Assembly (NCBI GenBank): GCA_021234155.1
Contig: JAJEKV010000161.1
Coordinates: forward strand, 959,316-1,023,315
Length of the DNA stretch: 64,000 nt
Direction: 5' to 3'
From: Isoetes taiwanensis
Taxonomy: Eukaryota > Streptophyta > Lycopodiopsida > Isoetales > Isoetaceae
In this document: positions 15,506 to 37,457 of the stretch, piece after piece
How the letters are laid out: each line of letters starts with the position of its first letter
Position numbering within the stretch: the first letter of the stretch is position 1
The notes under the pieces: generated by a model
Seen by the model: only the letters and a program-made list of their open reading frames with translations
Databases searched by the model: none
What the model was told of the DNA's origin: nothing
Translations under genes and position numbers: made by a program

Positions 15506-16297
15506 TTCTAGAACATTCTAGAAGGTTCTAGAAGATTCTAGAGCATTCTAGAACATTCTAGAATAGTCTAGAACATTCTAGAAGATTCTAGAACATCCTA
15601 GAACTTTCTAGAAGATTCTAGAACTTTTTAGAAGAATCCAGAAGATTCTAGAACTTTCTAGAACATTCTAGTATTTTCTAAAAAATCTAGAGCTAAGGTT
15701 TGAGGTAAGCTTATCAATTAAAAAAAACATATATATTCACAAATTAGAATAGGGAGAGTTGGTTAAGGGGTATCCCCCCAAACCCCCCTTGTGGGAGTCA
15801 AGAGGTCAGGGGTTCAAACCCCTTAAACAACATAAAAACTTTTAGAAGTTATCCTTAAAATTAATTAAAAATATTAAGGCCCAAGTATGCAACGTGAGCT
15901 TAGAGCATGTAATATGAGCCGTAGGATCTTGGACTAAGGATTAGGATCAATCTGGACCGTAGGATCGTCTATATATAAACTCCCAAGCCATCTGGGCCGT
16001 AGGATGTGTCATAGATCGACGTGGGCCGTAGGATCTTGGATCGACGGTCAAGATCAAGAGCAACCTGGACCGTAGGATCATCTATATATAAACTCCCAAG
16101 CCATCTAGGCCGTAGGATGTGTCCTAGATCGACGTGGGCCGTCGGATCTCGGATCAACGGTCAGGATCGGATCAACCTGGGCCGTCCGATCATCTATATA
16201 TAATTCCCACGCGATCTGGGCCGCACGATCTGCCACGAGCGACGTGGGCCGTCGGATCTGTCAAAAGAATCTCCCACAAGATGGGACGCGATCTGGG
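15506..16297 (+). repeat. Right arm of the ~793-bp inverted repeat
   Basis: This is the reverse complement of 5767-6559. From left to right it carries the TTCTAGAA array, the tRNA-like head (15752-15824), the spacer and the three GATCC-motif units. The portion from 15795 on is also the beginning of tandem copy 1. Confidence 0.9.
15752..15824 (+). repeat. tRNA-like head within the right arm
   Basis: Box A-like GAGAGTTGGTTAAGGGG and box B GGTTCAAACCCC lie on the plus strand. The start of the tandem duplication unit (15795) falls inside this head, between the anticodon-like region and box B. Copy 2 at 28685 therefore begins with half a head. Confidence 0.5.
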
Positions 16298-16424
16298 CCG
16301 TGCGATATGCCCCCGAGCGACGTGGACCGTCGGATCTGAACGGACGGTCGGATAAGCTCAATTATAAGAATATATATAGGTATATGATATGATATGATAT
16401 GATATGATATATATATATGTATAA

Positions 16425-16850
16425 AGATTCCATTAAAGTTTACATGGTCCCATCAAGATTCTTTAGGTTCTCAAAGATTTTACAAAGATTCCCTTGGATT
16501 CCCTCAAAGTCTCAAAGATTCTCTTGAGATTCCCTTAGATTCCCAAAAATTCTCCTGAGACTCCCTTAGATTCCCAAAGATTCTCTTAGATTCCCTTAGA
16601 TTTTCCAAAGATTCTCTTGAGATTCCCAAAAATTCTATTAGATTCCCAAAGATTCTCTTGAGATTCCTTTAGATCCCAAAAATTCTCTTAGATTCTCTTG
16701 AGATTCCCTGAGATTCTCTTGAGATTACCAAAGATTCTCTTAGATTCCATTATATTCTCTTAGATTCCCAAAGATTCTCGTGAGATTCCATTAGATTCTC
16801 AAAGATTCCCTTGAGATTCCCTTAGGTTCCCAAAGATTCTCTTGAGATTC
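16425..16850 (+). repeat. AGATTCYC minisatellite
   Basis: Degenerate units of AGATTCCCTTAGATTCCCAA and AGATTCTCTTGAG repeat throughout. The same array family recurs at 17690-18100, 18820-19070, 29315-29740, 30420-30680 and 42960-43490, and in inverted form at 24400-24660, 33180-33440 and 59040-59530. The arrays usually lie within 1 kb of a (TA)nCAAGT terminus. A short GATAT run (16384-16410) precedes this copy. Confidence 0.8.
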
Positions 16851-16854
16851 CTTA

Positions 16855-17000
16855 CGTTGGCTTCAACTGCGCCAGAACGGTGCCAAAGCACTATTTATTA
16901 GAAAGCTCTTGGCGAGAGGAACTCAACGGTGTGTAGGGCCCCACCTTCATCAGGCAGATCTCATCGCAAGTTACGTCCCTTTGAAGGCAATTAAAAAAGA
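16855..17000 (+). repeat. Module L (copies here, 18103, 20965, 29744, 31405, 43500)
   Basis: The ~150-200-bp module starts TGGCTYCAACTGCGMCA and continues TGCCAAAGCACYA, GAAAG.TCT.G.CGAGAG, CCCCACC and CTACTGCAAGYTACG, ending in GAAGCTTCC. Six copies occur in the same orientation, each downstream of an AGATTCYC array or a CCTTGATTTTGTCA/ACGGCTAGGATC segment. It is non-coding. The 82-94-codon frames crossing it are repeat artefacts. Confidence 0.75.
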
Positions 17001-17099
17001 AGCTTCCAAGAAGGTTCATTCATTAATGCATATTAATGTGAGTGCCACCTCACCTCTTTTATTAAATACATTATAATTTAATATAAAAATGAATGGCCA

Positions 17100-17395
17100 A
17101 GATTTCGCCTCCCCCTTTTGATCCAACGGTGGAGATTAGTTACACAAAAAAGCACCTTTTAGGAACTTTCCTTGCACCTTCCCAAAAAAAATCAAGGGCT
17201 AGGATTTCTCCTTCCCCCTTTGATCCGACGGCTGAGAGGCATGGTGCATGCCCCATGCATGCCCATGCATGCCCCCCCATGAAAATCAATGGTTATAAAT
17301 TTGCCACCTCACCCTCCCAAAACACGAACGGTCAAGATTGAATATTTATATGTAACATGATATTTTGTAACCACCCCCATGAGTTTCTATATATA
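17100..17395 (+). repeat. ACGG-motif/CATGCATG module
   Basis: TTTTGATCCAACGG, GCACCTTCCTTGCACCTTCC, TTTGATCCGACGGCTGAGAG and CCCCATGCATGCCCATGCAT follow each other. The order matches the hairpin-rich family and the 21240-21540 and 31690-31985 segments, so these elements are mosaics of the same blocks. Confidence 0.65.
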
Positions 17396-17402
17396 TATGT
17401 TA

Positions 17403-17411
<9 letters not shown>

Positions 17412-17433
<22 letters not shown>

Positions 17434-18685
17434 GTTTTTGTACTATAAATGGGTTTGTCAACTATGGTCTATAAACATCTCGGAGTAAAATTCAAGCTTG
17501 AAAGGATTAGTATTAAAGTTGAGTGCCAATAATTAGGTTAGAAGAAGTCATAGGTCGATAATAAAGTCTTGTTTGTTCAAGTCGAATTCAAGTGAGTTGC
17601 ACTATGACCTTATTGATCCAATCCCTAGGCTTTCTAAGCTTGGAAGCTTCAACTTTGTTGTTCCACGCTATCTTATAAGAGGCATGGTGAAAGATTCCCT
17701 TAGATTCTTAAGATTCGATTCTCAAAAAATTTAAGAAGATTCCCTAGATTCCTAAAGATTCTCTTAGATTCCTTTAAGTTCTACAAAGATTCCCCTACAT
17801 TCTAAGATCCTACAAAGATTCCCCTAGATTTTATTAAGATTCTCCAAGATTCTCTAAGATTCCATCTAGATTCCCATAATTCTTAAAGATTTCATGAAAA
17901 CTCCTCTAGATTGTCCTAGATTCCCAAAGATTTGTTTGAGATTCCTTAAGATTCTCTAAATATTCTCCTAGATTCTAAAAACACGTTTCAAGATTCCTCT
18001 AGATTCTTCAAGATTCTATGAAGATTCTACTACATTCCCTCAACTTACCATAGATTCCTTGAAACTCGAAGATTCCAAGAAAATTCTTAGTATTCGATCA
18101 CGTTGGCTCCAACTGCGACAAAATACTGCCAAAGCACCACTCCTTGGAAAGGTCTCGACGAGAGGAATCCAACTGCGTAGGCCCCACCTCTATCCGACCC
18201 CTCTACTGCAAGCTACGGGCCTTCGAAGGCGATTAAACAAAAGGAAACTTCCTAGAAAGTCCATTCATAAATACTTTGCCACCTCACTACCTTTTTTATT
18301 AATGAGGGTGCCTTTTTATTAATGAGGGTGCCACCTCACCTCCTTTAAAAGAAAAAAATCAATTTAATATTAAGAAGTTAATGGCTAAGATTTATCCTCA
18401 CCTTTTAATCTAACGGTTGAGATCTGCTGCACCAAAATTTTTTTTTGGCACCTTCCTTGCATCTTCCTCACAAAAAATCAAGGGCTATGATTTATTCTCC
18501 CCTTTCGATCCAACGGTTCGGGGATGTGGTGCATGCCTCCATGCATGCCCATCATGGCTCCTCAGTGAGGTGGCATTATCCTGGCCTTTCATTTCGTGAT
18601 TGGACGGCTGGGATGAATCTCTATGAACATGCCCATGGGATGACAAAACACACATCTAATACGTGTATATATATTAGTGATATAT
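17412..18685 (+). repeat. 1.27-kb segment absent from copy 2
   Basis: It starts in a (TA)n tract after GTTAGA and ends in TATATATA just before CAAGTATTTGTACC. It contains a T1 terminus (17428), an AGATTCYC array, a module L copy and ACGG/CATGCATG blocks. In copy 2, GTTAGA is joined directly to CAAGTATTTGTACC (30292). Either copy 1 gained it or copy 2 lost it between TA tracts. Confidence 0.7.
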
Positions 18686-19080
18686 ATACAAGTATTTGTA
18701 CCATGAGGGAGTGTATGAAGTCGAATGTACGCACATTAGAAAGTATAACCCAAGTTTTGCCAACATTCTATTAAGACTGTCCAATATTGTAAAAACATCC
18801 CTAGATCCCTGTGCATTTCTCGTAGATTCCCTAAAATTCTACAAAGTTTCTCTTGGATTTCCTAAGATCCTACAAAGATTCCACATTATTCTACAGGGAT
18901 TCACATGAATTTGTTTAAGAATCCCTAGATTCCCTTAAGATTCCCCTATATCCCCTTAGATTCCCTAAGGTTCCTTAAGAATACCCCAGGATTCTCATAA
19001 GATTCCCCTATGTTCCCAAAGATTCTCCCAAGGTTCCTTAGATTCGCTTAGACTCTATGAAGATTCCCCTAGTGCGAGAG
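18684..19080 (+). repeat. Terminus T2 (CAAGTATTTGTACCATGAGGGAG) and AGATTCYC array
   Basis: TATATACAAGTATTTGTACC, then ATGAGGGAGTGTA, then the short-unit array. The same head is found at 30292 (+), 42906 (+) and 59592 (-). Its first ~16 bp are shared with terminus T1, although the sequences beyond differ. Confidence 0.7.
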
Positions 19081-19537
19081 TTTTAGCGGACGCTCATGGA
19101 GTGCGAAGCTAGAACTTCGTAGAGAAGAAGGAGAGGAATAATTTTCCAAAGATTCTAGGCGCCCTTAGTTTAGAAAAAAAAAAGGTGTTGGAAGGAAAAC
19201 CAAATAGGTTGCCACGTAGTTCACATGACATCAAGCTCGTCCTCATGGTTAAAGATCGAAACCACATTAAGGTTTTTCTATAATAAAAGGCAAAAAATGT
19301 TGCCATGTAGTTACATCAAGCTCGTCCTCATGGTTAAAGTTTGAAAGAAAACTTGAAAAGAAAGCAAGATATGGCTTGCCACGTTTCACATTAAGATTTT
19401 TATATTCTATATTAAAAGGCAAAAAATGCATAAATTAATTACAATGCCACCTCAAAATCTATATATTAAATATAGATAAGATATGGTGCCAAATAAATGC
19501 ACATGCCACCTCAACTAACACCTCATGATTACAATAA

Positions 19538-20672
19538 GGGTAAATTGTAAAAATGCCCCTATATTTTTCTATAATTATGAAAATACCCTTGTATTTTATA
19601 TATTTATCAAAATGCCCTTAATTCTTGTACTTTTATGCCGTACACATGTTTTGCCCCGTTCTTTACAGGTTTTGGGAGAAAAATCCATGATTCAGCCCAA
19701 ATAGAGGCAAATTTGATGGGGCTTTTTGTGTGATCACGCTTGGGGAGAAGATCCGACCTGGGGACGAAGAATTGGATGCAAAAAGATAGCCTTCTAGAAA
19801 GAAATCACTTTGTAATATATGATGGATTCAGCTTGAAGGAAAAACCTATTGCAGGGAGACGGAATAGAACTGGAATCAGCTCTGTTGATGTCCTTAGCAT
19901 AGAAATGGTCTGTAAGTAGTGTGGCCTGCGCAGAAAGCGGCAAGTGCAGACAGCTAAAGCAAAGCGGTAGTGCGTTGATTTGAGAAAGGGTCTTTGACTT
20001 CGACTTGCAGCTAATTGCAGGTGATTGATCCGGCATACCAGATTGAAGGTGGACCACGGGACCACCATTCCAGCATACCATGTACCTAATATTCCTGTAG
20101 TACTGGCAATCATCAAATGAACAGCTCCGAAATCCCATCTCATTTCATAGATGGTTATTTTACAGCCTGAGGCCGTGTGTCCTTGCCGAAACCACAAGGC
20201 CTTTTCCTCTAGGCATTCTATCCAGTAGAATTATCCAAGGGGCCTTCCCTAAATCTGAAATAGATTTCGCAGAGCCAAATAAAGCATACGTTTACCTGTA
20301 TTTTAGCCTCCAAATTGGCAGTTCTTCATTCCGCTGGCTCCCTATTATAGCTGAAAATTCCTTGTACCAGCATTATCCGATCTCATCAATCATTCATAGA
20401 GCAGCTCGAATCACCTTGCTTTGTTCTAGAAACAGAATGCCCTAGAAGTCTACATGCAGCCGTTCGTTTGCTCTTTCTGACTCCTTTGGATCCGGCAGAC
20501 CAGAGGAAGAGTCTGCATATAATCGAGAAGAACAGAGAAGAGAAGATAAAAGGGAGAAGAGAAGATAGGAACTGTCGTGAAAAGCACAAAAGGGGTATTC
20601 TGACAATTACGCTAAATATGGGGGCATTTTTACAATTAGAGGAAAATACAGGGGCAATTTTACAATTTTCCC
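19538..20672. mobile_element. Non-autonomous Mutator-like element (1135 bp)
   Basis: Terminal inverted repeats begin GGGTAAATTGTAAAAATGCC on the left and GGGAAAATTGTAAAATTGCC on the right (about 28 of 32 match). They are flanked by a perfect 9-bp target duplication TTACAATAA (19529-19537 and 20673-20681), the size typical of Mutator/MULE transposons. Copy 2 has the single unoccupied TTACAATAA at 31114-31122. A second TIR-like block, GGGGGCATTTTTACAATTAG, lies inside the right end. The interior has no transposase and two overlapping minus-strand frames of 114 and 130 codons that I do not recognise, possibly a captured gene piece. The interior is less AT-rich than the flanks. Confidence 0.9.
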
Positions 20673-20679
20673 TTACAAT

Positions 20680-21600
20680 AAATGCTTGCATGCACATGTA
20701 TGCCACCTAACCACATGCATAGGAACTTCTTGTCACCTTCCTCTCTTATAGTTTGAACGATCCAGATTTCACCTTCCCCCATCTAACGGCCCATGTGCAT
20801 GGTGCATGGCCCATGCATGTATGTGCATATGTATGCATGTGCACATCGTGCCCATCCATGCATCACATGAGGTGGAATTATAACAACCCTTGATTTTGTC
20901 ATTTGACGGCTAGGATCAATCTCTATGAATATGACCCATGGGATGACAAAATCACACATCGATCACGCTGGCTCCAAATGCGACAAAATAGTGCCAAAGC
21001 ACCACTCCTTAGAAAGGTCTCGACGAAAGAAATCCAATGGCGTAGGCTCCACCTTCATCCGACCCCTCTACTGCAAGCTACGGGCCTTCGAAGACGATTA
21101 AACAGAAGGAAGCTTCCTAGAAAGTCCATTCATAAATACTTTGCCACCTCACTACCTTTTTTATTAATGAGGGTGCCTTTTTATTAATGAGGGTGCCACC
21201 TCACCTCCTTTAAAAGAAAAAAATCAATTTAATATTAAAAAGTTAATGGCTAGGATTTATGCTCACCTTTTAATCTAACGGTTGAGATCTGCTGCACCAA
21301 CTTTTTTTTTGGCACCTTCCTTGCACCTTCTTCACAAAAATCAAGGGCTAGGATTTATTCTCCCCTTTTGATCCAACGGTTTGGGGATGTGGTGCATGCC
21401 CCCATGCATGCCCATGCATGCCCATCATGGCCATCCATGCACCTCAATGAGGTGGCATTATCCTGGCCTTTCATTTCATGATTGGACGACTGGGATGAAT
21501 CTCTATGAACATGGGCATGGGATGACAAAACACACATCTAATACGTGTATATATATTAGTGATATATATATATATATATACAAGTCTTTGTACTATAAAT
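20680..21600 (+). repeat. Mosaic of module L, ACGG and CATGCATG blocks ending in (TA)nCAAGT
   Basis: CATGCATGTATGTGCATATG-type tracts lead into module L (20965-21135), then a direct 27-bp duplication around ATTAATGAGGGTGCC, AACGGTTGAGATC, GCACCTTCCTTGCACCTTC, CATGCATGCCCATGCATG and GACGACTGGGATGAATC, ending with TATATACAAGTCTTTGTACT at 21580. Copy 2 matches at 31120-32040. Confidence 0.65.
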
Positions 21601-22003
21601 GGGTCTATCACCTATGGTTTACAAAGATAGGGAAATAAAATCCAAGCTTAAACATATCAATATCTAAAGTTCAGTGTCAAGAATTAAGCTAGAGTAAATC
21701 AATATAATAGTGGAAGTCATGGGTAAAACCCAAAAATCTTATTGTTCAAGTCAAATATCATGATCCACGAATTTATTGTCATCAGAACGTGAATTCATTA
21801 GTGTCTCTAATGCATATCTCTAATTATATCATCACTAATTATCTCAATTGTGTTGTTGCACAAATGGCAGTATGCATCTAAACTAAGGCATGAAGTTTTA
21901 AGTTAAATCCCTTGTTTGATAGCCATTCAATGACCACCTTGGAATCGAAATTGCCGTGTGGCATTACAAATCGCACTTATAATTCCCTTGTGAAAACATT
22001 AAC

Positions 22004-22180
22004 TGTTGAGAAATGAGCCTTCTATGATTGGGTGGACAGGCTGGGGATCGAACCCAGGACCTCTCGCTTGCAAGCCAAGTACTCTACCACTGAGCTACCG
22101 GCCCTTTGATGGGCTTTCGGCACTCCTCCACTGAGTCATTCTTCATGTGTGCCCATTACACATACTCCAACATTCCAACA
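22004..22180 (-). repeat. TRIM-like LTR (177 bp) containing a tRNA-like gene
   Basis: On the minus strand it begins TGTTGGAATG directly after a polypurine tract and ends TTTCTCAACA, so the ends form a TGTTG...CAACA inverted repeat. The length fits terminal-repeat retrotransposons in miniature. A tRNA-Ala-like sequence occupies nearly half of it. Known Cassandra TRIMs carry 5S rRNA in the LTR in a comparable position; I see no 5S-like sequence here. The matching 5' LTR is absent from this copy because the chimera replaced it, so the exact start is inferred. A second candidate start, TGTTGGAGTATG, lies 10 bp inside. Confidence 0.7.
22033..22104 (-). tRNA. tRNA-Ala(TGC)-like sequence inside an LTR
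   Basis: The 72 nt fold as a tRNA: acceptor GGGCCGG/CCTGTCC with the G3:U70 identity pair of tRNA-Ala, D-arm GCTC/GAGT, anticodon loop CTTGCAA (anticodon TGC), variable loop AGGTC and a perfect T-arm CTGGG-TTCGATC-CCCAG. Mismatches at 5:68 (C-U) and 31:39 (G-G) suggest relaxed constraint. Box A TAGCTCAGTGG and box B GGTTCGATCCC match the pol III promoter consensus. No T-run terminator lies directly downstream. Because it sits inside LTR boundaries and the whole block is a recent insertion, I take it as part of a retroelement, not a native tRNA locus. Confidence 0.75.
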
Positions 22181-22189
22181 TTCCCCCTT
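22181..22189 (-). promoter_or_regulatory. Polypurine tract of the TRIM-like element
   Basis: AAGGGGGAA on the minus strand abuts the LTR start TGTTGG, the position where plus-strand DNA synthesis is primed. Confidence 0.7.
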
Positions 22190-22361
22190 AATGGGCACAC
22201 CAATCCATTCCAGCCTTCACCACAATCCACATGCTCCCCTCCTCGGGCAACTCCACCACTACGGGAGTTGGGCTTTCCACTGGCCAAGCTTTGCTCATTC
22301 TCACCCCTACACCACTGGGGACTATCCCGGTGCGGTTAAGCACCCTGTACTTGGGACCATG
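22190..22361 (-). mobile_element. Internal region of the TRIM-like element
   Basis: It is about 170 bp between primer-binding site and polypurine tract, with no coding frame that could be gag or pol. Such a short non-coding interior is the hallmark of TRIMs. GTGGTGGAGTTGCCCGAGGAGG-type sequence shows no similarity I can name. Confidence 0.65.
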
Positions 22362-22373
22362 GCTCTGATACCA
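22362..22373 (-). promoter_or_regulatory. Primer-binding site, initiator tRNA-Met
   Basis: TGGTATCAGAGC on the minus strand is the standard complement of the 3' end of plant initiator tRNA-Met used by copia-type and TRIM elements. Its first seven bases also continue the copia RT reading frame (GGTATC codes G-I), so the junction lies within this motif. Confidence 0.85.
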
Positions 22374-23257
22374 GCTTCCTGTGTGTAACCCTTTGCAACT
22401 AGCCGAGCCTTGTACCTTTCCACCGACCCATCAGCATTTCTTTTGATCTTAAACAACCATTTGCTTCCTACTACATTCTTGTCTTTTGGTCTAGTCACCA
22501 ATTCATATGTTCCTGTTTGCTTAAAAGAGTCCAATTCACCTTCCATTGCTTCCTTCCATCTTGCTGCGTCAGACCCTGTTACCGCCTGCTCAACTGTTTT
22601 TGGCTCTACAACACACGACATCAGCTTTGGCTTTGGCTCTCTCTTTGTTCTGCCATATAGTTCTGTATCAAAGGGGAGTTCTGCTCTGAGGCGCTCGACC
22701 TCTTTACGACGTGTGTACCTCCCCCTTACTCCTCTTCCTTCCTCTTCCTGCGTCTCCTGACGCACCTCACCTTGCACGCTCCTCGGTGCACTATCGGCCT
22801 CAAAGGCCTCATGCACCTCCTCGTGCTCCATCTCCGGTGTATGCGGTGCACTATCGACCTCTACGATCTCATGCACCTCATCCGGTTCAACATCTGAGTC
22901 ATCCATCGCCAGATTTGGCTGCTCCGCTACTTCCTCCTTTTCCTTTTCCTTTTCTGTATCCTCTTCAGAGAATTCTATCGGCACCCATTCTGCTGCTTCT
23001 TGCTTCGTTAGGCACTTCCTATCCTTATACAATATTGTTTCATCAAATACAACGTCTCTGCTAACGTGTATTTTGTGTGTTACTGGGTCATAAAGCCTAT
23101 AGCCATTAGTTTCCTCATCATACCCTACTAAGAAGGTCGGAATACTTCTGTCATCCAGCTTCCTACGCAGCTCTTCCGGAACTAACATATAGGCCAGACA
23201 CCCATACATCTTCAATCGTTCAACAGACTGTCTTTTTCCAGACCATATTTCATAAGG
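22367..23257 (-). pseudogene. Ty1/copia integrase C-terminus to RT N-terminus, fragment
   Basis: From 23257 the frame reads PYEIWSGKRQSVERLKMYGC, then FLVGYDEETNGYRLYDP and the HKIHVSRDVVFDE block that closes copia integrase. An acidic/Glu-rich linker of ~120 residues follows. The RT start is WKEAMEGELDSFKQTGTYEL, then VVGSKWLFKIKRNADGSVER and KARLVAKGYTQEAGI. Copia Pol normally continues with RT and RNase H; here homology stops at QEAGI, inside the primer-binding site of another element. The catalytic D,D,E of integrase and YVDD of RT are absent. The open, well-kept frame suggests a recent source element. This block is inverted relative to the copia 3' LTR beside it. Confidence 0.9.
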
Positions 23258-23398
23258 GATGAAGTAGAAAAAGGGGAAATAGAAGTAAGGCATATCTCGA
23301 CACATGAGCAGCAGGCAGACATGCTCACAAAGGCATTGACGGAGACAAAGTTGAAATTAGCAAAGGAGCAAGTTGGCATTCTGGAATGTACAGGCTGA
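23249..23398 (+). pseudogene. Ty1/copia RNase H C-terminal end
   Basis: The frame reads FIRDEVEKGEIEVRHISTHE, QQADMLTKAL and KLKLAKEQVGILECTG, then stops. This is the conserved end of copia Pol (HIxTxxQxADxxTKxL). Its first 9 bases, TTCATAAGG, are shared with the reverse complement of the inverted integrase fragment. The stop is directly followed by the polypurine tract, as in intact copia elements. Confidence 0.9.
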
Positions 23399-23406
23399 GG
23401 GGGAGA
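23397..23406 (+). promoter_or_regulatory. Copia polypurine tract
   Basis: GAGGGGGAGA sits directly before the LTR start TGTTGAATAC, right after the Pol stop codon. Confidence 0.85.
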
Positions 23407-23763
23407 TGTTGAATACACTTGGCACAAAATAAAATGTTCAGCCTGTACACACGTGGCAGTGAAGGGCAATGACAAGTGAAGGTCTGGATGTGCAGATCGA
23501 GATGGGCAAATTGCAGAAAAAGGAAAGGTCGAAAAGGTTGTAAGGGGTGCAGGAGAAACAAACGGGTGAAGAAGCGTGACGGTAGCAGACGGATTGGATC
23601 TGAAGGTGCATCGCTGGTCTGCAGGAGAGCAGGAGATCGTGGTTCCTGGAAGAAGATTTGGCAGGCGGTTTTTACCTGGATAAGCTTGGGCTGTCGGGGT
23701 TGGGTTACTGCAGCCGACTCATTGAGGTACTGCAATCTTAATATTTGTATTCTATTCACATCA
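23407..23763 (+). repeat. Copia 3' LTR (357 bp)
   Basis: It starts TGTTGAATACACTTGG after the polypurine tract and ends ATTCACATCA before the target duplication TTAAC. No second copy exists in the window, so the 5' LTR was lost in the chimera. The only likeness to the left-end LTR is TGTTGA. Confidence 0.85.
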
Positions 23764-24663
23764 TTAACCATGCCGTCACTCAGCCCCTAGCAGTTAGAAG
23801 TTGACCATTGTTTATTAGAACTTCTCAATCTATGGAATAAAAATGATCCAATGTTGTAGGAAGTGTCGTGCTAAAAGCTTGTTTCATATTCCATAATGGT
23901 CCTCCTTTTGGAAACTTCAAAATTGCTGGAATTGGTAATTTCTTACACTGCACATGGCCATTTGAGTGAGTATAGGGATTGACATTACTATATAGGAGCA
24001 GTGTGCAGTTTGTGGTGTCTACTTCAAGCCTTAAATTTGAGAAATTAATATTGTATAAAGATTCACCTAGATTCCTTAAGATTCGCCATATGCCAAGCAA
24101 CTATTCAAAGGCATATTGGTTTAACATGGTCGATTCAAATTTCATGACTTTCGCACGATGGAATTTGGATCAACATTCTTCAGACATTGCAAGGAACTTC
24201 TCTAAATGGTCAAATTTGCACACACATGACAATCTTAGGAGGATGCATTCTAGATACGAATGGAGAAATCTGCAACTAATAAATTGTAGACATATAAAAG
24301 ACAAATTAGAACCACCTCAGATCTTTAAAACATGTGCTACGTTGCTAATAATGCATTAAAAGAACACATAATTCTTACTGCATCTACATAGACTCCTCAT
24401 AAAACCTTGCAAATTCTTAAGGGGAACTTTCAACTTTAGGAAGTCTAGCAAAAATCATAAGAGAATCTTCACAAGCTCTTAAGAATCTAAGGGAATCTTA
24501 AAGGGGCCTAGAGGAAATGAATCATGAATCTACAATTAGAGGCTCGGGAACCATTTTTGCAACTTAAATCTTCAAGGAATCTAATAGAATGTTAAACGAT
24601 CTAATAATTTTTTTGTAATATCTTAAGGAATCTTAAGGAACTTGGACAATCTAAGCAAATTAG

Positions 24664-25209
24664 ATTTGTGGTACATCTGAGTCGTTTCCAACACTTCCTT
24701 CTGCAGTTGAGCATTGGGAAAGACAAATTAGTAGAATGCAGCGTAAGCGAAGTTCGACTGCTGCCATGTTTACATGGAACAGGGCTTGCCCGCACTGTCA
24801 CACCTCTCTGCTTATAAATGAGAATGATGCTTTTTGCCGTAATAATGGAAAGAGGATACTGCCGCGATTGCCTGAATTACATCATGAGCTCGCACGAATT
24901 TATAGTGAACGAGGTTTCAGTGCCGATAGTCGAAAGATGAATCATCTCTTTTGCTTCACGGCTCTTGGTGCAGATGGACAGTTCATAGAGCTCAGTACGC
25001 CTTCGTCAATTGCACTTATGGGTCGTACATACCATCAGCTGTTGCCTGTTTCAAAACCACACCAGCCATTACATTGGTATGTCCACGATGGTAATGACAG
25101 ATATCCAAGAGCAGAACAATATAGAGTTCCATTCACTTGGGTTGCATGCATAGCTTCCGTGCTAGAAGCTATAAATCCATATTGTGGATTGATAAGAAGA
25201 ATGCAATAA
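24664..25209 (+). pseudogene. Helitron N-terminal fragment (pre-Rep region)
   Basis: The open frame of 182 codons follows an in-frame stop; the first Met is at 24736. It contains AVEHWERQISRMQRKRSS, the putative zinc-binding ACPHCHTSLL...FCRNNGK, LPRLPELHHELARIY, the MNHLFCFTALGA block and TYHQLLPVSKPHQPLHWYVH. That series of blocks opens the N-terminal region of plant Helitron RepHel proteins, before the HUH nuclease. After DRYPRAEQYRV homology ends and an unrelated 25-residue tail follows. No nuclease or helicase is attached; the helicase at 4517-5803 belongs to a separate fragment. Copy 2 (33441-33993) is the broken counterpart. Confidence 0.75.
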
Positions 25210-28200
25210 TAGTGGTACATTAAGTCTATTATCTAACATTAAGTCTCTCAGCATTCCTCTATTGTCCCATTATGAACACCTCTATTGTCCCAATATGAAC
25301 ACAGAGCTATAAGATGGTAAGCCCATCCAAATTTAAAAAAATGCAAATCCAAGAGTTAAGAATCAAAAGTTCAAGACCGGCTGCACCTATAACCATCAAG
25401 TTGATTACCATTTATGGCAGTAACCTTTGCCATTTCTGGCAGTAACCTTTGCCATTTTTGGCTATAACCTTTTGCCACCTCTCTGCAGTTGAAAGGGAGT
25501 TATTAGTACAATAGTTGCCTGTTTGACATAATCACAAAAATGGCAACTTGCAATTTCACCTTAAGTTTATCTCAACGTCAATCACATCTACAAAACAGGA
25601 GATCCGAATGGCAAGATAAGGAGTTTTCCACTATTCACGAAGGAACACTGATCGCCTTTACCTTTGATGTTGCACAAAAACTCATGCAACAAGATCTTAC
25701 TCCATTGGTCTGTCGAAAAAATATATTGTTTAGTAGAAGATACATCCCCAAGCCAATAAATCTCGCGACTCTTCTCTTCCAAGCATGCATACATCAGCAA
25801 ACATATAACAAAAAAGGGGTTTATGCCCCTTTCGGTATCTTGTCATGACAAATAGATCATATAGGCCTTATGCCAAATCCAGCTATTTGGCTATAGCTAG
25901 ACTAGCAAGCAAATTTTAAAATGAAAGCTTACGATCCGCCAAAGAAGAGAGGAAGACTTGTTGGAGCCTAATATAGGCTCTTGTTGCCCGTGATGCAAAG
26001 CGAGATTCCAGAATAATTTAGAAGTTGTGGTTGCAAAACGGATGGCCATGGCATGCACGAGTAAATGGGCCTCATGGGCCTCGGACAAAAAGGGCTTCCA
26101 ATACAAATAACTTCAAATAACATTTTGTAATTGTCTTTTTGAAATCCAAGTGGTCTAACATTATGTAATTGTGATGGTGCTATCTTATGACCCCCGCGGG
26201 CTTTTCCATCCCCTTGGGCTCGGACTTTCGCAATTGTGTCGGTGAGAACCTTAGGACCCCCATCGAGGATATCGCATTTGAGGTAATTCGGGTTCCCGCA
26301 TTCTTTGTGTCCGAGTTTTCAGATCTGGCTTTGCATTTCTAGAGTTGTTGTAGGCTTTTGCAACGTTGCTAACCCCACTTTAGGAACCCCCAAAGAAGAA
26401 TCGCATTCCAAGTAATCCGGGTTTTGGAGAGTTAATGGTCCGCATTCCTGGTGGTCCTTCTCAAATGCAACCGTTTAGGCTAGGAAAATCGATTTAGCTC
26501 GCAAATGCAAGTGCGTAAGACATTCAAATCATATAACTTGATTCGCAAAAGATCTTTGGATCTTCCTAAGGTCATAGTATAATTTACATGCACAAAAAGC
26601 GCACTAAATTCGCTCACCTTGGCTAACATCGATGCTAACCGTTGGAATAAATACCATATTATATTTTCCTTTACGGACATGGTGCTCTCTGTTTTATTTT
26701 AAAGTATTTACGGCGAGAGTCCGCGGAATGTATATGAGACAAATAACAAAGATGTATAAGCTAATGTAGCTTGAGATCATAATATAGCTTAGATCTAAAT
26801 AGTAAAAATGCGGAAAAGAATGCAAGAATGGTTTTTCCCAAATTTTCCAAATTGGGAAGCTAATCGCAGATTAAGCATGTTAGAATTACATTTCCACACA
26901 TGGCTAAATGAAGAGGCTTAAAGGGTGCAACAAAAACAAAGCCCCAGGTCAAAGGGTTCCAAAGAGCTAAACAAAAGCTGCCTTGAAAAAACACAAAGGT
27001 TCATGGTAGGATTAAAAAGCAGGAGAACAAGAATAAAGATAGACTTGTTAATTCCTTCAATATAGCCAAAGGAAACAGGCTTACCATGGGATAATTCAAA
27101 ATACTATGTGCATATGCAAAATTATGAATAAAATCCTACCAGATCTACATAATTCATTTTACCAACCGCAACATCTCCCGATATAATGGTCACAGGACAA
27201 AAAGACCATGAAGCGTGGTTAAATGATTTAAGGAGCAGCCCAAAACAATGAGATCAAGCTTGTTAGAGTAATATTGCCACCCATGGCTACATGAAGAGGT
27301 ATCTGAGTGGTACAAAATGGAGGCAAATCCCAAAATCTATGGGTTTCAAAAAGCTAGACAATGCTTTGCAACAAAGATAAAACCATAGTTCATGGTGGGA
27401 CATAAATAGCGAAGAAAATTAATAGCACCAGACTTGTTATGCCAAAATAATGACTAAAACCAAGGTCTAGAAGTTCCAAAGAGCTAAAAAATGTCGCTCA
27501 TTGTATCAAACAACGGTTCATGGTAGGGCATAACAAATAGAGCAAATTATCAAAGATGAATTCGTTAACTTCATTACTACATCCAAAGGAACTAAGCTTA
27601 CAATGTGATAATACTAAATTATACGTGCATATGCAATATCACTAAGCCACTTCCAGATCTACACAATTCATTGCATTAAAACCGACATCTACTCAAAATT
27701 AGGGTCACATGAGACAACTGGAGGATAATAAATCGTCAATGACATTAAGCATCCGTGAGGCAAACAAAAACATAATGAGAAAAACTAGAGTGCCAAGTCA
27801 TCAAGGCAACACCGGATCCTAAATTAGTAGACCCAAAATGTTAGTGATGTAATCCCATAGCGACACAGTAGCCTCGAGAGCCTAAAAATATGCCAAATCA
27901 TAGACTAATCTGGAAAAATATAGGGATGTGTGGAGCTTGGCATGAGAACAAAATTAAAAGCCAAAGGGTTATGAGTAGAACAAAGCAAATATCACGAGTA
28001 TTTATCCTCCGCAGATCAAGGAACCTAGCTGTTAATATGTATGATACAAACAATTTTTTTGGTCAATATCTAAGAAAGGCCATCAACAAAGATTCAAGGC
28101 ATAATTTAACTCCTTGCCATCACCACTAAAAAATATAAGGTTCGGATCTAAATTATGCGAACACCTACCCCGGATCAGCAACTTAAATAATAGCAAATTA

Positions 28201-28300
28201 ACAAGTGAAGAGACTCTTTGGAAAACCATAGATCATTACAATCATTGGGCATCGATTGAGGCAAACATGGCTTGAGGAACATCAGCCTAGAAAATCAAAT
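25210..28300. other. ~3 kb without a recognisable gene; degenerate internal repeats
   Basis: A 102-codon plus frame at 25540-25848 (start MATCNFTLSLSQRQSHLQNR) is partly kept in copy 2 (34324-34593), but I do not recognise it. Between 26880 and 27720 related blocks recur: CACATGGCTAAATGAAGAGG/CCCATGGCTACATGAAGAGG ~380 bp apart, GGTTCATGGTAGG three times, and GTGCATATGCAA ~515 bp apart. This looks like an old, decayed tandem repeat of ~0.4-0.5 kb. Confidence 0.4.
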
Positions 28301-28307
28301 AGAAACA

Positions 28308-28493
28308 TTAATCGAGAAATGCGAGAATAGCCGTATAAGAATCAAATTCAGACATTGTCACCGGAGAACTCCCGGCTACTTCGAGATGTAATGTTTGGAC
28401 ATGAGATTTATCGCCAGGGGTTTGGCAATGCCCTAATGCTCTCAGACTCATAAAGAAAACGAAAAGAAAAAAATTCCTTCCATAACTCGCCAT
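28308..28493 (-). CDS. Putative first exon with signal-peptide-like start
   Basis: Minus-strand frame: MASYGRNFFLFVFFMSLRAL, then GHCQTPGDKSHVQTLHLEVA. The hydrophobic core FFLFVFF after one Arg, with a small-residue site before Gln, resembles a secretory signal. A GT (CCG|GTGACA) after GSSP could be a donor. Copy 2 (37093-37269) has the same start but with indels. A related stretch lies at 9843-9910 with a GTAAGT donor in the matching place. No downstream exon was found, so this may be a lone captured exon. Confidence 0.3.
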   Translation of the reverse strand: MASYGRNFFLFVFFMSLRALGHCQTPGDKSHVQTLHLEVAGSSPVTMSEFDSYTAILAFLD

Positions 28494-29743
28494 AGCCGCT
28501 ACCATCAGCCGCCAATGCAAGCAAATAAACAGAATAGAATTAAAGGAAGACTTTTACACAGCCCTACTGTTATAGAGCAGAGCTCCAAATCCGGTCATAT
28601 TTGGAGCAGACGAAAATTACCATAAAGAACCGACTGCCGGAGCAAGAGTCTTGATCAACATTTCCTTTCCAGCTGCAGAAACAAGAGTCAAGAGGTCAGG
28701 GGTTCAAACCCCTTAAACAACATAAAAACTTTTAGAAGTTATCCTTAAAATTAATTAAAAATATTAAGGCCCAAGTATGCAACGTGAGCTTAGAGCATGT
28801 AATATGAGCCGTAGGATCTTGGACTAAGGATTAGGATCAATCTGGACCGTAGGATCGTCTATATATAAACTCCCAAGCCATCTGGGCCGTAGGATGTGTC
28901 ATAGATCGACGTGGGCCGTAGGATCTTGGATCGACGGTCAAGATCAAGAGCAACCTGGACCGTAGGATCATCTATATATAAACTCCCAAGCCATCTAGGC
29001 CGTAGGATGTGTCCTAGATCGACGTGGGCCGTCGGATCTCGGATCAACGGTCAGGATCGGATCAACCTGGGCCGTCCGATCATCTATATATAATTCCCAC
29101 GCGATCTGGGCCGCACGATCTGCCACGAGCGACGTGGGCCGTCGGATCTGTCAAAAGAATCTCCCACAAGATGGGACGCGATCTGGGCCGTGCGATATGC
29201 CCCCGAGCGACGTGGACCGTCGGATCTGAACGGACGGTCGGATAAGCTCAATTATAAGAATATATATAGGTATATGATATGATATGATATGATATGATAT
29301 ATATATATGTATAAAGATTCCATTAAAGTTTACATGGTCCCATCAAGATTCTTTAGGTTCTCAAAGATTTTACAAAGATTCCCTTGGATTCCCTCAAAGT
29401 CTCAAAGATTCTCTTGAGATTCCCTTAGATTCCCAAAAATTCTCCTGAGACTCCCTTAGATTCCCAAAGATTCTCTTAGATTCCCTTAGATTTTCCAAAG
29501 ATTCTCTTGAGATTCCCAAAAATTCTATTAGATTCCCAAAGATTCTCTTGAGATTCCTTTAGATCCCAAAAATTCTCTTAGATTCTCTTGAGATTCCCTG
29601 AGATTCTCTTGAGATTACCAAAGATTCTCTTAGATTCCATTATATTCTCTTAGATTCCCAAAGATTCTCGTGAGATTCCATTAGATTCTCAAAGATTCCC
29701 TTGAGATTCCCTTAGGTTCCCAAAGATTCTCTTGAGATTCCTT

Positions 29744-30290
29744 ACGTTGGCTTCAACTGCGCCAGAACGGTGCCAAAGCACTATTTATTAGAAAGCTCTT
29801 GGCGAGAGGAACTCAACGGTGTGGGCCCCACCTTCATCCGACCCGTCTACTGCAAGTTACGTCCCTTTGAAGGCAATTAAAAAAAAGAAGCTTCCAAGAA
29901 GGTTCATTCATTAATGCATATTAATGTGAGTGCCACCTCACCTCTTTTATTAAATACATTATAATTTAATATAAAAATGAATGGCCAAGATTTCGCCTCC
30001 CCCTTTTGATCCAACGGTGGAGATTAGTTACACAAAAAAGCACCTTTTAGGAACTTTCCTTGCACCTTCCCAAAAAAAATCAAGGGCTAGGATTTCTCCT
30101 TCCCCCTTTGATCCGACGGCTGAGAGGCATGGTGCATGCCCCATGCATGCCCATGCATGCCCCCCCATGAAAATCAATGGTTATAAATTTGCCACCTCAC
30201 CCTCCCAAAACACGAACGGTCAAGATTGAATATTTATATGTAACATGATATTTTGTAACCACCCCCATGAGTTTCTATATATATATGTTA
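29744..30290 (+). repeat. Module L and ACGG/CATGCATG blocks, copy 2
   Basis: This is the counterpart of 16855-17411, with CCACCTTCATCCGACCCGTCTACTGC in place of a locally rearranged piece at 16930-16965. The copy 2 wording agrees with the other module L copies, so copy 1 is the altered one here. Confidence 0.7.
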
Positions 30291-31113
30291 GACAAGTATT
30301 TGTACCATGAGGGAGTGTATGAAGTCGAATGTACGCACATTAGAAAGTATAACCCAAGTTTTGCCAACATTCTATTAAGACTGTCCAATATTCTAAAAAC
30401 ATCCCTAGATCCCTGTGCATTTCTCGTAGATTCCCTAAAATTCTACAAAGTTTCTCTTGGATTTCCTAAGATCCTACAAAGATTCCACATTATTCTACAG
30501 GGATTCACATGAATTTGTTTAAGAATCCCTAGATTCCCTTAAGATTCCCCCTATATCCCCTTAGATTCCCTAAGGTTAGGATACCCCAGGATTCTCATAA
30601 GATTCCCCTATGTTCCCAAAGATTCTCCCAAGGTTCCTTAGATTCGCTTAGACTCTATGAAGATTCCCCTAGTGCGAGAGTTTTAGCGGACGCTCATGGA
30701 GTGCGAAGCTAGAACTTCGTAGAGAAGAAGGAGAGGAATAATTTTCCAAAGATTCTAGGCGCCCTTAATTTAGAAAAAAAGAAGGTGTTGGAAGGAAAAC
30801 CAAATAGGTTGCCACGTAGTTCACATGACATCAAGCTCGTCCTCATGGTTAAAGATCAAAAGAAAACATGAAAAGAAAGCAAAATATAGCTTTGCCACGT
30901 TCCACATTAAGGTTTTTCTATAATAAAAGGCAAAAAATGTTAAAGTTTGAAAGAAAACTTGAAAAGAAAGCAAGATATGGCTTGCCACGTTTCACATTAA
31001 GATTTTTATATTCTATATTAAAAGGCAAAAAATACCTCAAAATCTATATATTAAATATAGATAAGATATGGTGGCAAATAAATGCACATGCCACCTCAAG
31101 TAACACCTCATGA

Positions 31114-31122
31114 TTACAATAA
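31114..31122. other. Empty target site of the Mutator-like element
   Basis: A single TTACAATAA lies between CCTCATGA and ATGCTTGC, the exact pre-insertion sequence of 19529-20681. Confidence 0.92.
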
Positions 31123-31404
31123 ATGCTTGCATGCACATGTATGCCACCTAACCACATGCATAGGAACTTCTTGTCACCTTCCTCTCTTATAGTTTGAACG
31201 ATCCAGATTTCACCTTCCCCCATCTAACGGCCCATGTGCATGGTGCATGGCCCATGCATGTATGTGCATATGTATGCATGTGCACATCGTGCCCATCCAT
31301 GCATCACATGAGGTGGAATTATAACAACCCTTGATTTTGTCATTTGACGGCTAGGATCAATCTCTATGAATATGACCCATGGGATGACAAAATCACACAT
31401 CGAT

Positions 31405-32040
31405 CACGCTGGCTCCAAATGCGACAAAATAGTGCCAAAGCACCACTCCTTAGAAAGGTCTCGACGAGAGAAATCCAATGGCGTAGGCCCCACCTTCATC
31501 CGACCCCTCTACTGCAAGCTACGGGCCTTCGAAGACGATTAAACAGAAGGAAGCTTCCTAGAAAGTCCATTCATAAATACTTTGCCACCTCACTACCTTT
31601 TTTATTAATGAGGGTGCCTTTTTATTAATGAGGGTGCCACCTCACCTCCTTTAAAAGAAAAAAATCAATTTAATATTAAAAAGTTAATGGCTAGGATTTA
31701 TGCTCACCTTTTAATCTAACGGTTGAGATCTGCTGCACCAACTTTTTTTTTTTTGGCACCTTCCTTGCACCTTCTTCACAAAAATCAAGGGCTAGGATTT
31801 ATTCTCCCCTTTTGATCCAACGGTTTGGGGATGTGGTGCATGCCCCCATGCATGCCCATGCATGCCCATCATGGCCATCCATGCACCTCAATGAGGTGGC
31901 ATTATCCTGGCCTTTCATTTCGTGATTGGACGGCTGGGATGAATCTCTATGAACATGGGCATGGGATGACAAAACACACATCTAATACGTGTATATATAT
32001 TAGTGATATATATATATATATACAAGTCTTTGTACTATAA
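31405..32040 (+). repeat. Module L to (TA)nCAAGT mosaic, copy 2
   Basis: Counterpart of 20963-21600 with few substitutions; the T-run and (TA)n lengths differ. It ends at terminus T1, CAAGTCTTTGTACTATAAAT. Confidence 0.7.
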
Positions 32041-32441
32041 ATGGGTCTATCACCTATGGTTTACAAAGATAGGGAAATAAAATCCAAGCTTAAACATATC
32101 AATATCTAAAGTTCAGTGTCAAGAATTAAGCTAGAGTAAATCAATATAATAGTGGAAGTCATGGGTAAAACCCAAAAATCTTATTGTTCAAGTCAAATAT
32201 CATGATCCACGAATTTATTGTCATCAGAACGTGAATTCATTAGTGTCTCTAATGCATATCTCTAATTATATCATCACTAATTATCTCAATTGTGTTGTTG
32301 CACAAATGGCAGTATGCATCTAAACTAAGGCATGAAGTTTTAAGTTAAATCCCTTGTTTGATAGCCATTCAATGACCACCTTGGAATCGAAATTGCCGTG
32401 TGGCATTACAAATCGCACTTATAATTCCCTTGTGAAAACAT

Positions 32442-32446
32442 TAACC
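32442..32446. other. Empty target site of the chimeric retroelement
   Basis: A single TTAAC lies between GTGAAAACA and CATGCCGTC. Copy 1 has TTAAC on both sides of the 1760-bp insert. Confidence 0.92.
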
Positions 32447-32448
32447 AT

Positions 32449-32640
32449 GCCGTCACTCAGCCCCTAGCAGTTAGAAGTTGACCATTGTTTATTAGAACTT
32501 CTCAATCCATGGAATAAAAATGATCCAATGTTGTAGGAAGTGTCGCCGTCACTCAGCCCCTAGCAGTTAGAAGTTGACCATTGTTTATTAGAACTTCTCA
32601 ATCTATGGAATAAAAATGATCCAATGTTGTAGGAAGTGTC
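32449..32640 (+). repeat. 96-bp direct tandem duplication
   Basis: GCCGTCACTCAGCCCC through TAGGAAGTGTC is present twice back to back (32449 and 32545), with one C/T difference (AATCCATGG/AATCTATGG). Copy 1 has it once. Confidence 0.88.
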
Positions 32641-33440
32641 GTGCTAAAAGCTTGTTTCATATTCCATAATGGTCCTCCTTTTGGAAACTTCAAAATTCTT
32701 TGGAATTGGTAATTTCTTACACCGCGACATATGGCCATTTGAGTGAGTATAGGGATTGACATTACTATATAGGAGCAGTGTGCAGTTTGTGGTGTCTACT
32801 TCAAGCCTTAAATTTGAGAAATTAATATTGTATAAAGATTCACCTAGATTCCTTAAGATTCGCCATATGCCAAGCAACTATTCAAAGGCATATTGGTTTA
32901 ACATGGTCGATTCAAATTTCATGACTTTCGCACGATGGAATTTGGATCAACATTCTTCAGACATTGCAAGGAACTTCTCTAAATGGTCAAATTTGCACAC
33001 ACATGACAATCTTAGGAGGATGCATTCTAGATACGAATGGAGAAATCTGCAACTAATAAATTGTAGACATATAAAAGACAAATTAGAACCACCTCAGATC
33101 TTTAAAACATGTGCTACGTTGCTAATAATGCATTAAAAGAACACATAATTCTTACTGCATCTACATAGACTCCTCATAAAACCTTGCAAATTCTTAAGGG
33201 GAACTTTCAACTTTAGGAAGTCTAGCAAAAATCATAAGAGAATCTTCACAAGCTCTTAAGAATCTAAGGGAATCTTAAAGGGGCCTAGAGGAAATGAATC
33301 ATGAATCTACAATTAGAGGCTCGGGAACCATTTTTGCAACTTAAATCTTCAAGGAATCTAATAGAATGTTAAACGATCTAATAATTTTTTTGTAATATCT
33401 TAAGGAATCTTAAGGAACTTGGACAATCTAAGCAAATTAG

Positions 33441-33993
33441 ATTTGTGGTACATCTGAGTCGTTTCCAACACTTCCTTCGCAGCTTGAGCATTGGGAAAGA
33501 CAAATTAGTAGAATGCGCAGAAGTTTAAGTTCGATCTAACGCCATGTTTACATGGAATGAGGGCTTGCCCAAGACCGTCACACCTCTCTCGCTTATAAAT
33601 GAGAATGATGCTTTTGCCGTAATAATGGAAAGAGGATCTTTGCCAGCGATTGCCCGAATTACATCATGAGCTCGCATTTAATTTATAGTGAACGAGGTTT
33701 CAAAGGCCGATAGTCGAAAAGATGAATCATCTCTTTTGCTTCACGGCTCTTGGTGCGATGGAGTTCATAGAGCTCGAAGACGCCTTCGTCAATTGCACTT
33801 ATGGGTCGTATATACCATCACCGTTTGCTCTGTTTCAAAACCACACCAGCCATTACATTGGTATGTCCACGATGGTAATGACAGATATCCAAGAGCAGAA
33901 CAATATAGAGTTCCATTCACTTGGGTTGCATGCATAGCTTCCGTGCTAGAAGCTATAAATCCATATTGTGGATTGATAAGAAGAATGCAATAA
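33441..33993 (+). pseudogene. Helitron N-terminal fragment, copy 2, broken
   Basis: Nucleotide counterpart of 24664-25209. Numerous 1-4-base indels break the frame, so only pieces such as KMNHLFCFTALGA-like and HYIGMSTMV remain in different frames. The differences sit mainly in GC-containing words, while AT-rich stretches between them are unchanged. This could be true decay or assembly error (see findings). Confidence 0.7.
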
Positions 33994-36900: not shown

Positions 36901-37457
36901 GCCATCACCACTAAAAATATAAGGTTCAGATCTAAATTATGCGTAACACCTACCCCCGGATCAGAACTTAAATAATAGCAAATTAACAAGTGAAGAGACT
37001 CTTTGGAAAACCATAGATCATTACAATCATTGGGCATCGATTGAGGCAAACATGGCTTGAGGAACATCAGCCTAGAAAATCAAATAGAAACATTAATCGA
37101 GAAATGCGGAATAGCCGATAAGAATCAACCAGTACATTGTCACGGAGAACTCCCCGGCTACTTCGAGATGTAATGTTTGGACATGAGATTTTATCGCCAG
37201 GGTTTGGCAATGCCCGGAATGCTCTCGAGACTCATAAAGAAAACGAAAAAAAAAAAAATTCCTTCCATAACTCGCCATAGTGCGCTACCATCGGGCCGCC
37301 AATGCAAGCAAATAAACAGAATAGAATTAAAGGAAGACTTTTACACGACCCCTCTTGTTATAGAGCGAGCTCCAAATCCGGTCATATTTGGAGCGCACGA
37401 AAATTACCATAAAGAACCGATCACGGAGCAAGAGTCTTGATCAACATTTCCTTTCCA

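What the first reader, a model, noticed from the sequence alone, without database searches (positions are those of the whole stretch)
22004..22373. Miniature LTR retroelement whose LTR carries a tRNA-Ala-like gene
On the minus strand: primer-binding site TGGTATCAGAGC, ~170 bp of non-coding interior, polypurine tract AAGGGGGAA, then a 177-bp TGTTG...CAACA LTR that includes a 72-nt tRNA-Ala(TGC)-like cloverleaf with G3:U70 and intact A and B boxes (seen). Cassandra TRIMs carry a 5S rRNA gene in the LTR (known). A TRIM using a tRNA gene as its LTR-embedded pol III unit would be a parallel solution, and it gives a possible promoter for a non-coding element. Whether it has been described I cannot tell.
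Basis: partly seen in the sequence, partly recalled or inferred. Interest (0 to 1): 0.92.

Follow-up and report, generated by a model that had tools for sequence, protein, structure and literature searches.

The report
Miniature retrotransposon carrying a tRNA-like promoter
A tiny non-coding jumping element in a quillwort genome carries a tRNA-like gene in its ends; this kind of element was already described in 2024, but here its fused copies also record which larger elements it seems to travel with.

Summary
Window 22004-22373 (minus strand) is PBS, 193-bp interior, PPT and a 177-bp LTR containing a tRNA-Ala(TGC)-like block. The genome matches Isoetes taiwanensis, a lycophyte, not a fern. It holds 291 matches to the tRNA block and 114 to the interior start, with 0 control matches. 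The intact form is 547 bp with paired tRNA-bearing LTRs; 33 of 39 fully bounded copies have perfect 5-bp target duplications.

The kind is known: Kojima 2024 named LTR-embedded tRNA TRIMs 'Helenus', with Selaginella as the only plant (PMC10886601). This is a new Helenus-type family.

New are the chimeras. In 15 of 107 loci examined, the PBS is joined to a foreign sequence or a recombinant LTR. Ten of these partners look like Copia elements, from four families. Two hetero-LTR copies have perfect target duplications. One copy carries TRIM-U3/Copia-R-U5 LTRs. The window copy is itself a 1760-bp TRIM-Copia chimera with duplication TTAAC and an empty site at 32441-32445. These look like strand-transfer errors between co-packaged templates and point to Copia as helper. 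Pol III transcription remains untested, and conservation of the tRNA block is not significant in the wider LTR set.

The parts
22004..22180 (-). TRIM LTR (177 bp), 3' LTR of the TRIM part
   Evidence: sequence; the same unit is found 5' and 3' of the interior in other copies
22033..22104 (-). tRNA-Ala(TGC)-like block inside the LTR
   Evidence: ARAGORN, Rfam RF00005 57 bits
22087..22097 (-). A-box-like segment TAGCTCAGTGG
   Evidence: motif recalled; position from LTR columns 84-94
22044..22054 (-). B-box-like segment GGTTCGATCCC
   Evidence: motif recalled; position from LTR columns 127-137
22181..22189 (-). polypurine tract AAGGGGGAA
   Evidence: sequence
22181..22373 (-). TRIM interior, 193 bp, no long reading frame
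   Evidence: in the intact copy L009 no listed frame exceeds 77 aa
22362..22373 (-). primer-binding site TGGTATCAGAGC (tRNA-iMet type, recalled)
   Evidence: sequence; the same 12 bases follow the LTR of Copia family A
22374..23245 (-). Copia pol fragment (SH3-like domain to start of RT) joined directly to the TRIM PBS; right limit approximate
   Evidence: Pfam SH3_retrovirus and RVT_2; sequence
23246..23406 (+). Copia RNase H-like end and polypurine tract, opposite orientation to the pol fragment; left limit approximate
   Evidence: translation; RNase H recognised by eye, not by a Pfam hit
23407..23763 (+). Copia LTR (357 bp), TGTTGAATAC..CACATCA
21999..22003 (.). target-site duplication TTAAC (left)
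23764..23768 (.). target-site duplication TTAAC (right)
32441..32445 (.). empty target site (single TTAAC) in the paralogous copy of the locus

Best explanation
It is a Helenus-type TRIM: a 547-bp non-coding LTR retroelement whose LTR carries a tRNA-derived block. Inferred: RNA polymerase III starts at this block through its A and B boxes, so R-U5 begins near LTR base 77, and the RNA runs through the interior into the 3' LTR. Shown: PBS, PPT, TG..CA ends, paired LTRs and 5-bp target duplications, so it is copied and integrated as an LTR element. Inferred from chimeric copies: the enzymes and particle come in trans from Copia elements that use the same PBS. When both templates share a particle, strand transfers sometimes jump between them. 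A jump at the shared 12-base PBS leaves a Copia LTR in front of the TRIM interior. A jump by Copia strong-stop cDNA leaves a TRIM-U3/Copia-R-U5 LTR. The window copy is a rearranged product of this kind, integrated as one 1760-bp piece.
For: LTR match at both outer ends in 32 of the first 39 loci; TSD 5/5 in 33 of 39 bounded loci against 4 of 1482 crossed-flank controls; 7 of 32 within-locus LTR pairs identical. tRNA call. Own-LTR/PBS junction pattern: 130 matches, control 0; one of them, L108, is a chimera. PBS joined to a foreign or recombinant sequence in 15 of 107 loci. Copia A/TRIM junction: 7 pattern matches, of which 6 are these chimeras and 1 (L079) is the element's own LTR. Copia A's normal junction carries the same 12 PBS bases, then differs (5 of 6 stretches fetched, the sixth missed the LTR end). 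TSDs on hetero-LTR copies: L029 TTCGC, L108 CCAAG. L131 has the recombinant LTR on both sides, with flanks TATTC and TGTTC, 4 of 5. Reciprocal candidate, TRIM LTR end with Copia A interior, at C1065:5421097. Window chimera with TSD and empty site.
Against: No transcript data, so pol III use is inference. In the wider set of 129 LTRs the tRNA block is not significantly more conserved than the rest (p=0.32), and the A and B boxes are not more conserved than the rest of the block; only the 71 LTRs nearest the window copy gave p=0.0003. Absence of TTTT is not unusual: 748 of 1000 shuffles lack it too. In 5 of the 15 odd junctions (L011, L042, L092, L111, L133) the 5' partner is not resolved. Family B is called Copia by eye only. 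For L018, L019, L022, L089, L097 and L115 no TSD across the whole chimera was tested.
Confidence: 0.8

Rival explanations
1. The chimeras arose after integration, by recombination or nested insertion between neighbouring TRIM and Copia copies, and say nothing about the helper.
For: Tandem and segmentally duplicated copies exist (L011, L021/L039, L118-L120). L018, L097, L115 and L089 have an RNase H-like frame or its end and a PPT upstream of the Copia LTR, as a resident Copia would.
Against: L029 and L108 have a Copia LTR at one end, a TRIM LTR at the other and a perfect 5-bp TSD across both. The window chimera has a TSD and an empty site. L131 has the same recombinant LTR on both sides. In L018, L029, L097 and L115 the exchange falls at a 12-base shared PBS, too short for ordinary homologous recombination (inference).
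Confidence: 0.15
2. The tRNA-like block is a passenger; the LTR is transcribed by pol II and the block has no promoter role.
For: No significant conservation contrast in the wide set; two nearly fixed mismatches; no transcript evidence.
Against: No TATAA in the window LTR and no AATAAA in its LTR or interior. Columns with variants at 20% or more fall outside the block (0 of 72 against 6 of 105 in 129 LTRs, p=0.04). A and B box columns vary little (mean minor fraction about 0.04).
Confidence: 0.25
3. The block encodes a working tRNA-Ala and the element is kept because it supplies tRNA genes.
For: ARAGORN calls tRNA-Ala(tgc) in L009, L013 and L023 and Rfam gives 62.3 bits in L009 and L013. The alanine-type G:U third pair is kept, G:U in 119 of 126.
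Against: Pairs 5:67 (5 of 125 standard) and 30:38 (0 of 128) are mismatched in nearly all copies. The host has large arrays of ordinary tRNA-Ala genes, 190 pattern matches. No TTTT follows the block in the window copy; 5 of 129 LTRs have one.
Confidence: 0.05

Closest known systems
Helenus (TRIMp3), Kojima 2024, PMC10886601; Helenus-1_SMo of Selaginella moellendorffii
   Same: TRIM under 1 kb with a tRNA-derived block in the LTR, PBS, PPT and 5-bp TSD in plants
   Different: LTR 177 and interior 193 bp here against 120 and 85 bp; host Isoetes, a name not found in the main text of that paper. The sequence of Helenus-1_SMo was not at hand. Chimeras with Copia were not met in the sections read.
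Cassandra TRIM
   Same: small-RNA gene with a pol III promoter in the LTR of a non-coding LTR element; tandem copies
   Different: Cassandra has 5S rRNA; here only tRNA is found
Template-switching complex elements, Sabot and Schulman 2007, PMC1950507
   Same: fused LTR elements flanked by 5-bp TSDs and explained by switching between co-packaged templates
   Different: The cases described in the section read are within one element family each (Angela, Squiq, Opie); here a non-coding TRIM is joined to several Copia families, at the PBS
TRIMs with putative autonomous partners, Gao 2016, PMC4717578
   Same: small elements with 5-bp TSD and putative Copia partners
   Different: Partners there are named by sequence similarity (passages seen); here the TRIM LTR and Copia A LTR share only their first 18-19 bases (84%, E=0.4). 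Copia A's interior was read for about 60 bases only.

Membership tests
Helenus | TRIM shorter than 1000 bp with two LTRs | tested here: met
   547 bp in the plain form; LTR match at both outer ends in 32 of the first 39 loci
Helenus | tRNA-derived sequence inside both LTRs | tested here: met
   ARAGORN finds one per LTR in L009, L013, L023; Rfam in L009, L013
Helenus | PBS and PPT at the ends of the interior | tested here: met
Helenus | 5-bp target duplication (plant and fungal form) | tested here: met
   33 of 39 bounded loci perfect, 3 more at 4/5, 3 lower; L021 and L039 are one duplicated insertion
Helenus | no encoded mobilisation protein | tested here: met
   longest listed frame overlapping intact copy L009 is 77 aa
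Helenus | conserved A and B boxes | tested here: inconclusive
   present, but not more conserved than neighbouring columns in 129 LTRs
TRIMp3 | transcription by RNA polymerase III | not testable with these tools
   no transcript data
Cassandra | 5S rRNA sequence in the LTR | tested here: not met
   Rfam at gathering thresholds finds only tRNA in the window and in L009, L013
tRNA-derived SINE | no LTRs, PBS or PPT (recalled definition) | tested here: not met
   paired LTRs, PBS, PPT and 5-bp TSD

The most novel reading that the evidence does not exclude
A pol III-driven TRIM is a generalist parasite of four or more Copia families through a shared primer-binding site. Its copies preserve products of both reverse-transcription jumps between parasite and helper: PBS-level jumps giving hetero-LTR insertions, and a strong-stop jump giving a TRIM-U3/Copia-R-U5 LTR whose break lies about 30 bases after the Copia TATA-like box. 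If true, the fossil record names the helpers of a TRIMp3 element directly.
Probability: 0.55. Interest if true: 0.65.

Novelty: new member of a known kind. Interest (0 to 1): 0.5.

Why it matters
Kojima 2024 states that no autonomous partner is indicated for Cassandra and that it is not known how a TRIM keeps its dependence on its partner. In the papers read, helpers are inferred from PBS, LTR or interior similarity. Here the genome itself records fusions between the parasite and particular Copia families, some with target duplications. This gives a test that can be run in any genome with a TRIMp3 family: collect interiors whose 5' LTR is foreign and read off the helper. It also extends Helenus-type elements from Selaginella to a second lycophyte lineage.

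Tried and rejected
Selection on the tRNA block: strong in the 71 LTRs nearest the window copy, lost in 129 LTRs (p=0.32), weak for frequent variants only; I do not claim it. The 129 leave out the duplicates L119 and L120. No-terminator argument: rejected, since 748 of 1000 shuffles also lack TTTT. Origin of the tRNA block: about equal identity to host tRNA-Ala (55) and tRNA-Ile (56), so the source is not settled. One-LTR integration using the TG of the PBS as an end: considered for copies without 5' LTR and dropped when Copia LTRs were found there. L131 left flank: the fetched stretch missed it; tested by pattern instead. L087 has its own LTR cut at base 101 and joined to the PBS; L121 has its own LTR with an inner deletion; neither is counted among the 15. 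Comparison with Helenus-1_SMo: no sequence at hand. Reciprocal chimeras at C1065 and C1037 were seen only as pattern matches; 4 of the 6 matches look like a Copia A LTR variant. A PDB sequence search with an RNase H-like frame found nothing.

Full report
Observation. On the minus strand the window has PBS TGGTATCAGAGC (22362-22373), a 193-base interior, PPT AAGGGGGAA and a 177-bp LTR TGTTG..CAACA (22004-22180), as reported. ARAGORN finds tRNA-Ala(tgc) at 22031-22104. Rfam tRNA scores 57 bits. The window has only one copy of the TRIM LTR.

Host. The own genome has 1,658,258,908 bases in 1110 contigs. The Isoetes taiwanensis paper gives 1658.30 Mb, 204 scaffolds and 909 contigs (PMC8566536, passages seen). 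I infer that species. It is a lycophyte, not a fern.

Family. The first search listed 79 matches from 40 scored of 604 candidates. Of 39 loci fetched, 32 have an LTR match at both outer ends with interior between; the plain form is LTR(177)-interior(193)-LTR(177), 547 bp. A PBS/interior pattern gives 114 places and a reversed control 0; 103 places were listed. The tRNA-block pattern gives 291, control 0. The own LTR/PBS junction pattern gives 130, control 0, and includes the chimera L108. In total 86 loci were fetched with both sides (39; 20; 20; 7). Another 20 were fetched only around the PBS. With the window this makes 107. Of the 86, 39 have complete own LTR ends with flanks in the fetched stretch; 33 have a 5/5 TSD, 3 have 4/5 and 3 less, against 4 of 1482 crossed-flank controls. 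L021 and L039 share flanks and are one duplicated insertion; L118-L120 are another. Seven of 32 within-locus LTR pairs are identical and the median difference is 2.3%, so some copies are young. Tandem forms occur, for example L011, L021, L025, L028.

tRNA block. In 129 LTRs, 19 of 21 cloverleaf pairs are standard in most copies; the third pair is G:U in 119 of 126. The pairs 5:67 (5 of 125 standard) and 30:38 (0 of 128) are mismatched. L009 and L013 score 62.3 bits per block, above the three host tRNA-Ala genes tested, 53.5-59.1. Host tRNA-Ala genes form large arrays (190 matches). Conservation is mixed. In 71 LTRs the mean minor fraction is 0.0106 in the block against 0.0425 outside (p=0.0003), though 10 of 177 circular shifts do as well. 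In 129 LTRs it is 0.034 against 0.0535 (U3) and 0.0614 (tail), p=0.32, and A and B boxes are not special. Variants at 20% or more fall 0 of 72 inside and 6 of 105 outside (p=0.04; p=0.05-0.06 at lower thresholds). I take the promoter role as likely, not shown.

Chimeras. In 15 of 107 loci the PBS is joined to a foreign or recombinant sequence: window, L011 (outermost), L018, L019, L022, L029, L042, L089, L092, L097, L108, L111, L115, L131, L133 (recount). L087 and L121, with own LTRs that carry deletions, are not counted. Six of the 15 involve one Copia family, called A here (L018, L029, L097, L108, L115, L131). A genome-wide junction pattern gives 7 matches, these six and L079, which is the element's own LTR. 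Copia A has 105 LTR-start matches; pairs that I checked by eye lie about 3.9-5 kb apart. Its own junction reads ..TTCTTTACA then TGGTATCAGAGCTGTAGG in 5 of 6 stretches fetched; the sixth missed the LTR end. In L018, L029, L097 and L115 the same LTR end is followed by the PBS and then TRIM interior, so the change lies at the 12 shared PBS bases. L029 has TSD TTCGC across Copia LTR and TRIM LTR. L108, whose LTR is A-like and was read only in part, has CCAAG. L022 carries another LTR (family B) before the TRIM PBS-interior-LTR, followed by a PBS and a gag-like frame with a zinc knuckle; L019 has a shortened B LTR after an RNase H-like frame and PPT. L089 has a Copia RT end (RVT_2), an RNase H-like frame, PPT and a further LTR, family D. 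RNase H frames were recognised by eye; Pfam gave no hit for them, but RVT_2 upstream in L097. So Copia is supported by Pfam for A, C and D, and by eye for B. L011 and L042 have pol-like frames, antisense, in the 5' flank (by eye; Pfam Pol_BBD and gag_pre-integrs for L042) but are unresolved, as are L092, L111 and L133 (L111 and L133 share a flank).

L131. Both LTRs are TRIM LTR to about base 127 fused to Copia A LTR from about base 177 to the end; the middle of the 5' LTR was not read, its start was seen as a pattern match. The break is about 30 bases after a TATATA in the Copia A LTR. This is what strong-stop cDNA made on Copia RNA and moved to TRIM RNA would give. Its flanks are TATTC and TGTTC, 4 of 5. 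The recombinant lost the B box and only one such copy was seen.

Window copy. Reading +, 22004-23763 is TRIM LTR, interior and PBS (reversed), a Copia pol fragment (reversed; SH3_retrovirus and RVT_2), then an RNase H-like end, PPT and a 357-bp LTR (family C) in the forward sense. TTAAC flanks both ends. A paralogous locus has one TTAAC at 32441-32445 with the same flanks. It is one integration of a rearranged TRIM-Copia cDNA.

Literature. Kojima 2024 (PMC10886601; abstract, introduction, results and discussion read) defines Helenus and lists Selaginella as the only plant; the word Isoetes is absent from its main text. It infers Copia for fungal Helenus from PBS and interior similarity. Sabot and Schulman 2007 (PMC1950507; abstract and results read) describe template-switch complex elements with TSDs. 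Gao 2016 (PMC4717578, passages) names putative partners by similarity. A 2024 Cassandra paper (PMC10853983, passages) has no Isoetes or tRNA in its main text. Searches, judged from their listings (some cut short) and the passages opened, showed no Helenus report for Isoetes and no TRIMp3-helper chimera; the library lacks most subscription journals and I saw no supplements.

Conclusion. A new Helenus-type family, ordinary in kind, with a clear record of exchange with Copia. Shown: anatomy, paired LTRs, TSDs, chimeras. Inferred: pol III start, Copia particle as helper, order of strand transfers.

Noticed in passing
window 15795-22003 and 23772-28671 against 28685-32445 and 32545-37457: Segmental tandem duplication with long stretches at 96-99% identity; the second copy is the empty site for the chimera.
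   Followed up: partly
window 32449-32641: A 96-bp unit duplicated in tandem (98% matches) just beside the empty target site.
   Followed up: no
window 7268-8629: Tandem array of about six 222-bp units, 91% matches.
   Followed up: no
G000 contigs C926, C232, C66, C921, C1101, C1079, C1066: Host tRNA genes in large local arrays: tRNA-Ala (190 pattern matches), tRNA-Ile(tat), and tRNA-Arg(tct) with tRNA-Thr(agt) side by side.
   Followed up: no
L080, L085, L088, L091, L095: TRIM copies with internal tandem expansions of the 193-base interior.
   Followed up: no
G000:C1065:5421097 and C1037:613509: Pattern matches that may be reciprocal chimeras, TRIM LTR end before the Copia A interior.
   Followed up: partly
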